This document shows, piece after piece, positions 28,386 through 32,864 of a stretch of 64,000 nucleotides of DNA. The position numbers and the translations under genes were made by a program. This DNA comes from Vampirovibrio chlorellavorus. GTDB lineage: Bacteria > Cyanobacteriota > Vampirovibrionia > Vampirovibrionales > Vampirovibrionaceae. Location of the stretch: the NCBI GenBank assembly GCA_903866275.1, contig CAIPMU010000002.1:124001-188000 (forward strand), written 5' to 3'. Positions within the stretch are counted from its first letter, which is position 1. Each line of letters opens with the position of its first letter. Below the pieces are notes generated by a model, which was not told the origin of the DNA, did no database searches, and saw nothing but the letters and a program-made list of their open reading frames with translations.

Positions 28386-28642
28386 AGGGCGCGCGGATGC
28401 AAGCCCTTGGCCAGAAATTTTTCAAAAAGCCGTTACATGGGCTGGCATGCCGCTGGGGGAAGGGGCTTTTGCCATGCGCCGGGGCTGGCTCCACGGCACA
28501 GATGGGGCCAAGTGCAGGGCGCTAACATATGCCTTTTTCCCAAAAAGCCCTAGAATAGGAAGAGGGGCCGCGCCATGCAGCGACCCTGCAACAGCGCCCG
28601 AGCCACTGGCTCCGTCGGCGCGGGCAAGAGGTGGAGCAGTAC

Positions 28643-30010
28643 ATGTCGGATTCCGGAAGTTTTCAAAGCCCGTTTCCTGAAGACAAGCTGATAGAGACCC
28701 GCACGCGCATCCGGGAGATTCTCTACAAGACCGACCTGTACAAGTACAAGGGTCGGGTCTCAAAATTGCAGGGCCTGACCGTGGAAGCCACGCTGCCCAA
28801 GCTGAAGATTGGCGATCTGTGCTTCATCGAGAGCATGGACGGCACCCCCAAGGCTGCCGAAGTGGTCGCGTTCAAGGGCGACACCGCCCAAATGCTCCTG
28901 CTTTACGATGGCACGGGGATTTATCAGGGCAGTTGGGTCGCCACTACTGGGGCGGCCATCACCGTGCCCGTCGGGGATTTCCTGCTGGGCCGCCTGATCT
29001 CCCCCCTGGGTGAGCCCATGGACGGTCGCCCGCTGGATCTCAGCAAGGCCAAGTACGTCAACGTGGACGCCTCACCGCCCGACCCCTTGCACCGGCCCAT
29101 TATCAAGCATAAGTTCTCCACCGGGGTGCGCGCCGTGGATGCCCTGCTGACCATGGGCGCGGGGCAGCGCATGGGCCTGTTTGCGGGCTCCGGTGTCGGG
29201 AAATCGACCATGCTGGGCATGATTGCCCGGAACTCGGAGGCCGACGTGAACGTGGTGGCGCTCATTGGCGAGCGGGGCCGGGAGGTCAAGGAGTTCATGG
29301 AGAATAGTCTGGGCGAAGAGGGCATGAAGCGCTCGGTTTTGGTCTGCGCCACCGGCGATCAACCGCCCCTGCTGCGGATGAAATGCCTGCTGACCGCCAC
29401 CGCCGTCTGTGAATACTTCCGGGATCAGGGCAAGAAAGTCTTCTTGATGACTGATACCGTGACCCGGTGCGCCATGTCCGGCCGCGAGGTGGGCCTGGCC
29501 ATTGGTGAGCCACCCACCATGAAGGGCTACCCGCCCTCGATCTTCTCCTGGCTGCAAAAGGTGCTGGAGCGCTCCGGGGCCACCGAAGAGGGCTCCATCA
29601 CGGCCCTCTATACCGTGCTGATGGAAGGCGACGACACCAACGACCCCGTGGTTGATACTGTGCGGGGGATCATCGACGGTCACATCTTCCTGAAGCGCAA
29701 GATTGCCGCCCAGAACCGCTTCCCTGCCATTGACGTGCTGGACAGCGTGAGCCGTCTTTTTACCGAGATTTGCGACCCCGAGCACATGCAGGCAGCCGCC
29801 AAAATGCGCGAGCTGATGGCCGTCTATCAGGATGCCCGCGATCTCATTGATGTGGGCGCTTATGAACACGGCTCCAATCCCAAGATCGACATGTCCATCC
29901 GCATGATGCCGGAAATTGACCAGTTCCTGCGCCAGTCCGTCAAAGATCTGGTGAACATGGACACCACCATTGCCAGCCTGAAAGACATGATGGGCGACGT
30001 GCGCTTTTAA
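28643..30010 (+). CDS. fliI: Flagellar export ATPase FliI
   Basis: 455 residues, an F1-beta-like hexameric ATPase that powers export through the flagellar type III apparatus at the membrane. Walker A is AGSGVGKS and the ALIGERGREVKEF block follows. The stretch GLAIGEPPTMKGYPPSIF favours FliI over virulence-type YscN/SctN. The start is ATG 28643 after GGTGGAG. It is alone: no fliH, fliJ, fliF or fliG flank it, so flagellar genes are scattered in this genome. The coding region is more GC-rich than its neighbours. Confidence 0.9.
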   Translation: MSDSGSFQSPFPEDKLIETRTRIREILYKTDLYKYKGRVSKLQGLTVEATLPKLKIGDLCFIESMDGTPKAAEVVAFKGDTAQMLLLYDGTGIYQGSWVATTGAAITVPVGDFLLGRLISPLGEPMDGRPLDLSKAKYVNVDASPPDPLHRPIIKHKFSTGVRAVDALLTMGAGQRMGLFAGSGVGKSTMLGMIARNSEADVNVVALIGERGREVKEFMENSLGEEGMKRSVLVCATGDQPPLLRMKCLLTATAVCEYFRDQGKKVFLMTDTVTRCAMSGREVGLAIGEPPTMKGYPPSIFSWLQKVLERSGATEEGSITALYTVLMEGDDTNDPVVDTVRGIIDGHIFLKRKIAAQNRFPAIDVLDSVSRLFTEICDPEHMQAAAKMRELMAVYQDARDLIDVGAYEHGSNPKIDMSIRMMPEIDQFLRQSVKDLVNMDTTIASLKDMMGDVRF

Positions 30011-30058: not shown

Positions 30059-31642
30059 TTAATACGGCGTGTCGCAGAACTCGATGTTGGGATTTTTCTC
30101 TTTCATGTAGTTCATAGCCCACTCGCCTTTAATCAGGGCCACGACGCGGCCGTCCGCGTCTTCGGCCTTGCGGGCGTTCACAATCCATTCCGCCTGATCA
30201 ATCGCCTCGGGGGGCGCAGCCAGCCAGCGCGCGTGGGTGTATTCGGTCAGGTGTTCTATTTGGGTTTCCACGTTGTATTCGCTTTGCAGGCGGTACTGCA
30301 CCACTTCAAATTGCAAACGGCCTACGGCGGCTAAAATGGGGTTGCGCTGCCCGGAATCCTGGAAGTACATGACCTGAATCGCGCCCTCTTGCCGGAGCTG
30401 GTCGATGCCCTTCTGGAATTGCTTGTACTTGGAGGGGTTGGGGTTGCGCAGCAGGGCAAAACACTCGGGGGCAAAGCAGGGGATGGGTTCAAACTCAAAC
30501 GCTTGCCCCACGCACAGCGTATCGCCAATGGCGAACTGATCGTTGCTGCTCAGGCCCACGATATCGCCTGCGTAAGCTTCGTTGACTGTTTCCCGGTCTT
30601 GCCCAAACAGGCGGTGCGAGTGCGACAACCGGATCATCTTGCCCGTGCGCGGGTGCTTCACCTGCATGTCTCGGGCGAACTGACCCGAGCAAATCCGCAT
30701 AAATGCGATGCGATCCCGGTGCTGGGGATCCATATTGGCCTGAATCTTGAAGATAAAGCCGGAAAAATGATCGTCTGCCGGATCAATCGGCCCGTGATCG
30801 CTTTTGCGCGCGCTCGGGGCCGGGGCCAACGCTAAGAATTGCGCCAGAAACAGCTCAATCCCGAAGTTATTGGCCGCGCTCCCAAAAAACACCGGCGTCA
30901 TCAGACCGGCCTGATAGAACGCTTCCGAGAACTCTTCGCCGGCCATGTCCAGAATTTCAATCTCTTCCACCAGCTGGTTGTAGGTGGATTCCGGCATCAT
31001 GGCCTTGACCGAGGGATCATGTACATCGCCCACGGAGACCGGGGCCTTGTACTTGCCGTGATCCGTGCGCTCAAAGGTGTGTAGCTTATTCTCGCGCCGG
31101 TCGTAGACCCCTTTGAAAGTGTCTCCCATCCCGATGGGCCAGTTAAAGGCGTAAGTTTTAATATCAAACAGGCGTTCCACTTCATCCAGCAGTTCCAGTG
31201 GTTCGCGGCCGGGGCGATCCAGCTTGTTGATGAACGTGACCACCGGGATGCCCCGGCGTTTGCACACCTGATACAGCTTCTTAGTCTGGGTTTCTACCCC
31301 TTTGGCATTGTCCAGTAGCATAATCACGCTGTCGGCGGCCATGAGGGTGCGGTAGGTGTCCTCGCTGAAGTCCTGGTGACCGGGGGTGTCCAGCAGATTG
31401 ATGTGAAAGCCGTTGTACTCAAAGTTCAGCACGGTCGAAGTAATTGAAATCCCGCGCTGGCGCTCCAAGGCCATCCAGTCGGAGGTGGCTTGGCGTTGCT
31501 GCTTCTTGGCTGCCACGGATCCCGCCAGGTTCAAAGCGCCCCCGTAAAGCAACAGCTTCTCGGTGAGGGTTGTTTTCCCGGCATCGGGGTGGGAGATAAT
31601 GGCGAACGTGCGTCGCTGCTGGACTTGGGGGGCAAAGGTCAT
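30059..31642 (-). CDS. prfC: Peptide chain release factor 3
   Basis: 527-residue translational GTPase that removes RF1/RF2 from the ribosome after termination. G1 is SHPDAGKTTLTEKLL, G3 is DTPGHQDFSEDTYRT and G4 is NKLDR. The C-terminal part carries the RF3-specific blocks AAVGRLQFEVVQYRLQSEY and LTEYTHARWL. It is convergent with fliI, with 48 nt and no hairpin between the stops. Confidence 0.97.
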   Translation of the reverse strand: MTFAPQVQQRRTFAIISHPDAGKTTLTEKLLLYGGALNLAGSVAAKKQQRQATSDWMALERQRGISITSTVLNFEYNGFHINLLDTPGHQDFSEDTYRTLMAADSVIMLLDNAKGVETQTKKLYQVCKRRGIPVVTFINKLDRPGREPLELLDEVERLFDIKTYAFNWPIGMGDTFKGVYDRRENKLHTFERTDHGKYKAPVSVGDVHDPSVKAMMPESTYNQLVEEIEILDMAGEEFSEAFYQAGLMTPVFFGSAANNFGIELFLAQFLALAPAPSARKSDHGPIDPADDHFSGFIFKIQANMDPQHRDRIAFMRICSGQFARDMQVKHPRTGKMIRLSHSHRLFGQDRETVNEAYAGDIVGLSSNDQFAIGDTLCVGQAFEFEPIPCFAPECFALLRNPNPSKYKQFQKGIDQLRQEGAIQVMYFQDSGQRNPILAAVGRLQFEVVQYRLQSEYNVETQIEHLTEYTHARWLAAPPEAIDQAEWIVNARKAEDADGRVVALIKGEWAMNYMKEKNPNIEFCDTPY

Positions 31643-31803
31643 GGCGATGGGTTGGGTCTGGGGCTTTCAGGGCGGGTAACGAGAGCCCATCTTAGCACGG
31701 ACTTTTGGGGGTGAAAATGCGCTTCTGCTGATGGTGGTGTCAAATCAGCCCTTTGAAAAGACGGGTATGAAACCCCCGGGTTGTAACAGCTCCGTTACAA
31801 AAT

Positions 31804-31831
31804 TAAAGTTTTGCCGTTCTAAAGCCGATGT
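31804..31831 (+). promoter_or_regulatory. Near-consensus sigma-28 (FliA) promoter
   Basis: TAAAGTTT at 31804-31811, a 12-nt spacer and GCCGATGT at 31824-31831, against the enterobacterial consensus TAAAGTTT-N11-GCCGATAA. All eight -35 bases and six of eight -10 bases match, with one extra spacer base. It is 47 nt upstream of the GTG start of the next gene. Confidence 0.7.
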
Positions 31832-31878
31832 ATGGATAGAGTATTCAGCCGTGATTCAGCGTAGAAGGACACGATACA

Positions 31879-32208
31879 GTGGGTTTAGCTGCCAGCCAGG
31901 CCAGATTTTTAGCCTTGACTGCCCGAAAGAGTGACTTGGAACTCACCGGGCAACAGATTAACCAGTCACGGATGCAGTTGGCCAATGTGACGAACAATCT
32001 GTTTAACCTGACCACCAATCTGGAGCCGGACTCGGCTGCGGCTGTTCAGATTCAGACCCGAATCAATGCCATGCAGAGCCTGGATAAATCGCTGGAGTTG
32101 CAATTGCGCCGGGTAGACACCCAACAACAGGCGGTTCAAACCGAAATTGACGCCGTGCAAAAGGTCATCGACAAGAACATTGATATGTCCTTTAAAACGT
32201 TCGGGTAA
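31879..32208 (+). CDS. Small coiled-coil protein of the MGLAASQARFL type, likely sigma-28 controlled
   Basis: 109 residues, GTG start with AAGGA upstream. It opens MGLAASQARFLALTARK and continues with Gln/Asn/Leu heptad-like stretches (LELTGQQINQSRMQLANV, LDKSLELQLRRVDTQQQAV). This predicts a helical, coiled-coil protein without a signal peptide. I recall similar starts in hypothetical proteins from Melainabacteria and related phyla, but the function is unknown. The sigma-28 promoter ties it to the late flagellar regulon, perhaps as an export chaperone, filament-associated protein or assembly factor. Confidence 0.75.
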   Translation: MGLAASQARFLALTARKSDLELTGQQINQSRMQLANVTNNLFNLTTNLEPDSAAAVQIQTRINAMQSLDKSLELQLRRVDTQQQAVQTEIDAVQKVIDKNIDMSFKTFG

Positions 32209-32864
32209 CGAATGACCCATAGGATTGCTAAATATACTGCTCACTGGGGCAATGTGGGTGAGGTCTAATTCGGGGGATGTAGGAACTGGAAAAAAACTTT
32301 CACCAGCGGGTTTAGGTCGTTGAGTTAATGAAGGTGATATGCATGTTTGATATATTAAAAATATCCAATAGGCTGTCTTCCTCAACGACTCAACCATTCA
32401 AAGCCCTGCACCTCACGGTCAGGGCTTTTTTTTGCTCATGTTGTGGGACAGGATAGATACCAAAAAATAAAGCTTCCCAGCGAGTTTGTGGCAAGGTTTA
32501 TATGCTGGGAAGCAGAATCTGGTTCACGATTGATATGTATTTGTGAGTTAAGAAATGACTAAAACTGTAGGGGATTAGGGGGTTGAAAGGGTCAAGCTAA
32601 ATGACGGATTGAGCGTGGGGTTGCTTGAAGTGAATCCTCAGGCAGAGCGATCTCAGAACAGGCCAGTAGCTTATTTTTAAGTTTAGCGGATGCATATTGA
32701 GTTTAACGTTTCAGTTCTGTAAGAAATGATGCTTGGGGAATATCGGTATCGCGGTCTGGCTGGCAATGTAATTGTTTACACCATAAAATGACTCTTTCAA
32801 CTTGCCGAGATCGCGCTAAATCGGATGGGGTGGAATTATTAGACCGGACAAATGTAACCTGGTT
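32209..32864. other. 656-nt region without a recognised gene
   Basis: It contains a terminator at 32400-32433 and an inverted repeat, GCTTCCCAGC (32472-32481) with GCTGGGAAGC (32504-32513), around a 22-nt loop. The rest is stop-rich in all frames. A short minus-strand frame overlapping the previous gene lacks support. It could hold a small RNA or a decayed gene. Confidence 0.5.
32400..32433 (+). terminator. Terminator downstream of the sigma-28 gene
   Basis: AAAGCCCTG and CAGGGCTTT pair, extended by ACC/GGT, and a run of eight T follows. It lies 190 nt after the stop of the small protein, so the transcript would have a long 3' tail or a second promoter lies between. Confidence 0.85.

What the first reader, a model, noticed from the sequence alone, without database searches (positions are those of the whole stretch)
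31804..32208. Near-perfect sigma-28 promoter driving a small MGLAASQARFL protein
Seen: TAAAGTTT-N12-GCCGATGT, 47 nt upstream of a GTG-started 109-residue coiled-coil gene, in a window that also carries fliA and fliI. Established: the FliA consensus is TAAAGTTT-N11-GCCGATAA. Inference: this conserved but uncharacterised small protein is a late flagellar gene, for example an export chaperone or filament accessory protein.
Basis: partly seen in the sequence, partly recalled or inferred. Interest (0 to 1): 0.65.

Follow-up and report, generated by a model that had tools for sequence, protein, structure and literature searches.

The report
Substrate candidate of flagellum-like exporter
The small gene carries a genuine flagellar-type promoter, but it belongs to a large, unnamed protein family that is also abundant in gut relatives without flagellin, so it most likely feeds a second, flagellum-like export machine rather than the swimming flagellum.

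Summary
Motif and gene are real, but the promoter is not near-perfect: 14 of 16 bases, spacer 12 instead of 11. Closest orthologues keep it. The 109-aa protein is a predicted helical hairpin of a family without accepted Pfam match, found in 18/18 genomes of its order (Vampirovibrionales) and 9/9 of family f6 (Gastranaerophilales, inferred). In f6 most members are long: the hairpin halves flank a variable, beta-rich insert, a flagellin-like layout. f6 has no Flagellin_N match (0/9), yet keeps FliA (4/4 tested), and FliA-type sites precede long members (24/48 against 4/342 control ORFs).

Vampirovibrionales carry two flagellar-type export sets; f6 keeps the second type. The window's fliI is of this second set (68-70% identical to f6 FliI, 51% to the genome's other fliI). 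A conserved partner gene looks translocator-like.

Best reading: a FliA-controlled axial or exported protein of a second, flagellin-less flagellar-type export machine. Export is inferred, not shown. Against: one paralogue subtype lacks the motif; families f5, f7, f8 have second-type FlhA but no detectable member.

The parts
31781..31800 (.). palindrome TTGTAAC-N6-GTTACAA directly upstream of the -35 element; possible regulator site
   Evidence: read; a GTTACA or TTACA half-site sits at the same place in several orthologues (alignment)
31804..31811 (+). FliA (sigma-28)-type -35 element TAAAGTTT
31824..31831 (+). FliA-type -10 element GCCGATGT, spacer 12
   Evidence: CGA and TAAAG core kept across the aligned orthologues
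31864..31869 (+). GAAGGA, likely ribosome-binding site
   Evidence: read; the same GAAGGACACG run precedes the ATG of paralogue L038
31879..32208 (+). 109-aa helical-hairpin protein (GTG start), GQQ subtype of the MGLAASQAR family
   Evidence: ORF; family; AF2 model helices 3-45 and 53-108, mean pLDDT 91.4
32400..32433 (+). terminator-like hairpin AAAGCCCTG...CAGGGCTTTTTTTT
   Evidence: read; not tested with a terminator scan
28631..30010 (+). fliI of the second flagellar-type export set
   Evidence: 68-70% identical to the best FliI match of four f6 genomes, 51% to the other FliI of its own genome; passes the fliI_yscN subfamily but neither the FliI nor the SctN equivalog cut-offs
30059..31642 (-). 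prfC (peptide chain release factor 3, name recalled), separates fliI from the gene; neighbour kept in three same-genus loci
   Evidence: ORF; tblastn 87-88% beside the orthologue in L072, L073, L074
63929..64000 (+). beginning of the FliA match, cut by the window edge
   Evidence: TIGR02479 match G000:C2:187929-188603, over cut-off

Best explanation
The gene encodes a small helical-hairpin protein transcribed by FliA RNA polymerase and, most likely, exported by a second flagellar-type type III export apparatus (FlhA2, FliP2, FliI2, FliH, FliF, FliE, FliOQR, a FliN-type protein and rod-type proteins) that coexists with the swimming flagellum in Vampirovibrionales. It is the short form of a family whose long forms in Gastranaerophilales keep the two conserved helical ends and carry a variable beta-rich domain at the tip, so members probably assemble as axial or surface subunits on, or pass through, this apparatus. 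Shown: motif, its conservation, family, two export sets, FliI type. Inferred: transcription by FliA, export, assembly.
For: Motif conserved in closest orthologues and in long members: Gastranaerophilales loci 24 of 48 members score >=13 against 4 of 342 control ORFs; Vampirovibrionales 7 of 34 against 10 of 320. FliA over cut-off in 15 of 15 genomes tested, including 4 f6 genomes that belong to the 9 of 9 f6 genomes without Flagellin_N. Strict FliA-type pattern: 40 sites in 9 f6 genomes against 4 for the reversed control; at least 13 of the 40 precede family members. FlhA tree: second FlhA of f1/f3 groups with f6 at 100/100. Window FliI is the second type. FliI lies beside a long member in 2 of 45 Gastranaerophilales loci, L147 and L149. 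The short member lies about 8-10 kb from FlhA in 5 of 9 f6 genomes. AF2: hairpin; long form helix, beta insert, helix, with flagellar axial proteins as best VIA-align matches, Z up to 9.6. Hairpin plus MSYKNDS pair conserved from Vampirovibrionales to Gastranaerophilales.
Against: No export or expression data. GQF-subtype paralogues lack the motif (0 of 16) and only 7 of 15 GQQ-subtype members in those loci have it. f5, f7 and f8 genomes have second-type FlhA but no detectable family member. In 4 of 9 f6 genomes short member and FlhA are on different contigs. G005 and G011 have no strict FliA-type site at all. No sequence profile match to flagellins or needles; Foldseek E-values at best 0.009 with TM about 0.15 for the long form.
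Confidence: 0.58

Rival explanations
1. One reading: a late gene of the swimming flagellum (export chaperone, filament or hook accessory) transcribed by FliA and working with the main flagellum of Vampirovibrio.
For: FliA-type promoter; Vampirovibrionales have flagellin, 18 of 18; only one FliA-type sigma over cut-off per genome, so the regulon is shared.
Against: Family abundant in flagellin-less f6 (9 of 9) and not detected in flagellin-bearing f5 (0 of 9; a profile search of 8 of these 9 gave only two weak partial matches, E 0.004 and 0.24); no chaperone family match; long forms up to 739 aa are not chaperone-like.
Confidence: 0.15
2. FliA-controlled but not exported by either flagellar-type system: for example a cytoplasmic coiled-coil protein or a surface protein that leaves by another route.
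For: No signal for the export route was tested; own-genome FliA-type sites also precede pilin-like FTLAEL proteins (L007, L204), so the regulon is not purely flagellar; many paralogues lack the promoter.
Against: Co-distribution with one FlhA branch, FliI adjacency in two loci, flagellin-like layout of long forms.
Confidence: 0.22
3. A WXG100 or LXG-type small helical hairpin of a type VII system.
For: About 100 aa hairpin; EsxA, CFP10-ESAT6 and Lap proteins appear among Foldseek and VIA matches.
Against: Such matches are expected for any hairpin, none with E <= 0.001; long forms split the hairpin around an insert at the tip, unlike LXG proteins (recalled); no match to such Pfam models.
Confidence: 0.03

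Closest known systems
FliA (sigma-28) class 3 flagellar genes
   Same: TAAAG...CGAT promoter about 60-75 nt before the start; FliA in the genome
   Different: spacer 12 here; target family abundant where no flagellin gene is found
Flagellin, FlgL, FliD and other flagellar axial proteins
   Same: long members: conserved N- and C-terminal helices around a variable beta-rich middle; best structural neighbours are axial proteins, Z 9.6 down to about 6
   Different: no Pfam or PDB sequence-profile match; own-order members have no insert at all; N-terminal signature MGLAASQAR
Non-flagellar type III secretion systems (injectisomes), including the secretin-less Myxococcales type
   Same: flagellum-derived export core without filament; possible translocator-like partner gene
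   Different: the second system keeps FliE, rod-type proteins and the FliF C-terminal domain; the Myxococcales systems lack FlgBCDEK, FliEG, FlgH and MotAB (PMC3459982, passages); secretin not tested
Partial flagella described in Gastranaerophilales
   Same: probably the same gene sets: literature reports subsets of flagellar genes that would not make a flagellum (PMC4040986, PMC3787301, passages)
   Different: read there as loss; here as a separate, retained export system with its own FlhA lineage, FliA regulon and large substrate-like family

Membership tests
FliA-controlled (class 3) gene | FliA-type promoter close upstream | tested here: met
   14 of 16 bases, N12, score at about the 99.9% null level
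FliA-controlled (class 3) gene | promoter kept in orthologues | tested here: met
   five distinct closest orthologues all score 14.0 or more; wider GQQ subtype 7 of 15, GQF subtype 0 of 16
FliA-controlled (class 3) gene | transcription lost without fliA | not testable with these tools
   needs an experiment
Component of the swimming flagellum | occurs with flagellin | tested here: not met
   present in 9 of 9 f6 genomes with 0 of 9 Flagellin_N
Flagellin family (PF00669) | sequence match to the family model | tested here: not met
   no match for the short or the long form
Flagellin-like axial protein | conserved helical ends, variable middle | tested here: met
   long forms only
Flagellin-like axial protein | same fold as axial proteins | tested here: inconclusive
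   Z up to 9.6 among candidates pre-ranked by Foldseek; Foldseek E 0.009 at best
Flagellar export chaperone | match to a chaperone family model | tested here: not met
   Pfam and NCBIfam scans gave only coiled-coil noise below cut-offs
Type III needle subunit | match to a needle model | tested here: not met
   no such Pfam match
Second system as flagellar-type export apparatus | FlhA, FliF, FliE, FliH, FliI, FliO, FliP, FliQ, FliR present | tested here: met
   f6 genome G020. Own genome: FlhA, FliF, FliE, FliH, FliP, FliI and FliN-type by model or identity; FliO, FliQ, FliR read from sequence and gene order only
Second system as flagellar-type export apparatus | FlhB present | not tested
   no search made
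Second system as NF-T3SS | lacks flagellum-specific genes | tested here: not met
   rod-type proteins and FliE present; criteria from PMC3459982 (passages)
Second system as NF-T3SS | has its own secretin | not tested
   no secretin search made

The most novel reading that the evidence does not exclude
Gastranaerophilales of the gut and the predatory Vampirovibrio share an independent exaptation of the flagellum: a rod-bearing, flagellin-less export machine run by FliA, with a large family of flagellin-like proteins with variable tips (17-26 matches per f6 genome) as its external fibre or tip, the MSYKNDS protein as a membrane-inserting translocator, and further FliA targets (a calpain-like protein among them) as delivered proteins. 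It would be an alternative to the type IV system proposed for the attachment spikes of V. chlorellavorus (PMC4451040, passages).
Probability: 0.22. Interest if true: 0.92.

Novelty: new variant of a known kind. Interest (0 to 1): 0.72.

Why it matters
Gut Gastranaerophilales have been described as having broken or partial flagella. The conserved FliA, the retained export core and a large family behind FliA-type promoters suggest that the machine is in use for something other than swimming. That bears on how these uncultured gut bacteria touch hosts or other microbes, on predation by Vampirovibrio, and on how often secretion systems arose from flagella. It gives a directly testable list of candidate substrates.

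Tried and rejected
Chance match: rejected because of position and conservation, although the window-wide expectation alone (0.41) would not exclude it. Spurious ORF: rejected, the 109-aa frame is kept almost without gaps across 20 relatives. Antisense ORF 31966-32397 on the minus strand: no family evidence sought or seen. Fold search with the short model: uninformative, any helical hairpin matches (784 matches with E <= 10, none <= 0.001; VIA Z 13.3 at best). PDB sequence-profile searches with both alignments: only coiled-coil or ferritin noise. Family in f5, f7, f8: looked for with an N-terminal profile, not found; two weak partial matches in f5, E 0.004 and 0.24. One photosynthetic-side genome (G224) matched at E 5e-4 and 0.26; treated as noise. 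Literature: searches for type III secretion with Gastranaerophilales, Melainabacteria or Vampirovibrio, for flagella with Vampirovibrionia or Gastranaerophilales, and searches listed no paper whose listing describes this system; only open-licence PMC texts are searched, so absence there is limited.

Thresholds: the score 13 used was chosen; spacer penalties were set by hand; the matrix comes from sites picked by consensus, not from mapped promoters. Alignment A4 holds 12 chosen rows, 11 with a visible motif and one weak (L018b); members without a motif were left out of it.

Full report
The observation. At 31804-31831 the window reads TAAAGTTT-N12-GCCGATGT, 47 nt before the GTG (31879) of a 109-codon frame ending at 32208. 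Against the published consensus TAAAGTTT-n11-GCCGATAA (PMC2859248, one passage) this is two mismatches and a spacer one base longer. In the whole genome the N11 consensus has 95 matches with up to 3 mismatches against 41 for the reversed control; 2 are perfect and 11 have one mismatch. Among them is TAAAGTTT-N11-GTCGATAC about 200 nt before a Flagellin_N match on contig C16, a useful positive control. In the window alone the N12 pattern would be expected 0.41 times by chance, so the match by itself is modest. A matrix built from 28 genome sites gives the window gene 16.7, near the 99.9% quantile (17.0) of a Markov null for 150-nt upstream stretches.

The family. The protein has no accepted Pfam or NCBIfam match. 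It has six copies in its own genome (a seventh listed row is a weak coiled-coil match). A single-sequence search finds relatives in 27 of 58 genomes: 18 of 18 in its own order and 9 of 9 in family f6, none in the other 31. Handle G004 has the contig length of the V. chlorellavorus contig LAPX01000005.1. With a profile, 132 of 292 drawn genomes of the phylum match: own, f6, f10 and one doubtful. In the own order the members are near 109 aa and align almost without gaps. In f6, 17-26 matches per genome were counted, some being the two halves of one protein; most members keep residues 1-48 at the N end and about 54-109 at the C end of proteins of roughly 200-740 aa with a variable insert.

Structure. 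AF2 predicts a hairpin for the window protein, helices 3-45 and 53-108, mean pLDDT 91.4. A long Gastranaerophilales member, L127, is helix 2-47, a beta-rich insert about 60-242, helix 244-318, mean pLDDT 88.8 but pTM 0.56. Foldseek gives no match with E <= 0.001; eight of its nine best rows are flagellar filament or cap proteins at E 0.009 to 0.29 with low TM-scores. VIA-align, limited to Foldseek's candidates, lists mostly flagellar axial proteins at the top (FliD or FliC complexes, FlgL, hook, FlgG), Z 9.6 down to about 6. By that tool's own note such Z values can arise from a common arrangement, so this is support for an axial-protein-like layout, not proof of kinship. The short model is uninformative.

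Promoter conservation with controls. In Gastranaerophilales loci, 24 of 48 members score 13 or more against 4 of 342 other ORFs of at least 200 aa; at 20 or more it is 9 against 0. In Vampirovibrionales loci it is 7 of 34 against 10 of 320; all seven are of the GQQ subtype (7 of 15), to which the window gene belongs, none of the GQF subtype (0 of 16) or of three others. The five distinct closest orthologues score 14.0, 16.0, 16.9, 17.6 and 24.4, and the C16 paralogue 20.2. An alignment of 12 chosen upstream stretches keeps the TAAAG and CGA cores and often a GTTACA just before. The strict pattern TAAAGWWT-N11/12-GNCGATAW has 40 sites in nine f6 genomes against 4 for the reversed control, 10 against 1 in the own genome, 3 against 1 in six f7/f8 genomes, and none in G005 and G011. 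Of the 40, 12 are followed by a family member (eight flagged by the script, four recognised by eye), and one more (G025 contig C34) by the match listed; others precede a 165-aa family (five cases), a 140-aa protein with weak similarity to the C-terminal domain of Fic-type enzymes, a calpain-like protein (Peptidase_C2, 21.0 bits, under the 23.8 cut-off), an EF-hand-like protein and an HD-domain protein.

Two export sets. FlhA (FHIPEP) is in 48 of 58 genomes; 17 of 18 Vampirovibrionales genomes have at least two matches, f6 has one full-length copy and one shorter match. Flagellin_N is in 27 of 58: 18 of 18 in the own order, 9 of 9 in f5, and 0 of 9 in f6. In a tree of 24 FlhA, the second FlhA of f1/f3 and the f6 FlhA form a group with 100/100 support; with f5b, f7 and f8 they stand apart from the first FlhA, f5a and E. 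coli (E. coli is a long branch, and the tool warns that long branches meet). The second cluster of the own genome holds FlhA, FliH, an unmatched 350-aa protein in the FliG position, FliF, FliE, a transglycosylase and two rod-type proteins; f6 genome G020 holds FliE, FliF, a 338-aa protein, FliH and FlhA in one run, FliN-type, FliO, FliP, FliQ and FliR in another, and a FliA-type sigma with four rod-type genes nearby (the FlgC-like one named by eye). FliA over the cut-off is in 15 of 15 genomes tested. The window fliI is 68-70% identical to the FliI of four f6 genomes and only 51% to the other FliI of its own genome; it fails both the FliI and SctN equivalog cut-offs. So the gene sits 1.9 kb from an ATPase gene of the second set, though in three same-genus loci only prfC, not fliI, is the neighbour.

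Linkage. In f6 the short member lies on the FlhA contig at about 8-10 kb in 5 of 9 genomes and on another contig in 4. In 45 Gastranaerophilales loci (627 kb) FliI is found beside a member in 2 (L147, L149), and none of the other apparatus genes; a third FliI row at 29% and one weak FliA-like match look like other ATPases and sigma factors. A gene whose product begins MSYKNDS follows the GQQ-type short member in Vampirovibrionales and lies next to members in 16 of those 45 Gastranaerophilales loci; V. chlorellavorus has the pair. The window copy lacks it, the C16 paralogue has it. This protein has two conserved Gly/Ala-rich hydrophobic stretches and a coiled-coil-like end, a layout recalled from type III translocators; no database match supports this.

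Reading. The most economical explanation is that FliA, shared with the swimming flagellum in Vampirovibrio, also runs a second flagellar-type export machine whose substrates or axial subunits include this family, and that f6 kept only the second machine. Papers describe f6-like gene sets as partial flagella (PMC3787301, PMC4040986, PMC5877343, passages). Against it stand the missing motif in the GQF paralogues, the absence of the family from f5, f7 and f8 although they have second-type FlhA, the loose physical linkage, and the lack of any export or expression data.

Noticed in passing
window 31781-31800: Palindrome TTGTAAC-N6-GTTACAA directly before the -35 element; a half-site is kept in several orthologues.
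   Followed up: partly
window 32209-32433: About 220 nt non-coding tail with an imperfect inverted repeat (GGTCGTTGAG / CTCAACGAC) and a terminator-like hairpin.
   Followed up: no
L174:603-1421 (G049): Calpain-like cysteine protease candidate behind a FliA-type site in a flagellin-less gut relative; Pfam match just under its cut-off.
   Followed up: partly
L007 and L204 (own genome): FliA-type sites before proteins with a pilin-like FTLAEL motif, hinting that the FliA regulon reaches type IV pilins.
   Followed up: no
L055:6456-7508 and L056:17232-18248: The protein in the FliG position of the second set is not recognised by Pfam as FliG (350 and 338 aa); the f6 copy has only a weak MgtE_N match.
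   Followed up: partly
G020:C6:10760, G035:C3:317649 and other f6 genomes: A second, shorter FHIPEP match covering only the C-terminal half, in a frame of about 500 aa, in 9 of 9 f6 genomes.
   Followed up: no
G029 (f5): 32 Flagellin_N matches in one genome.
   Followed up: no
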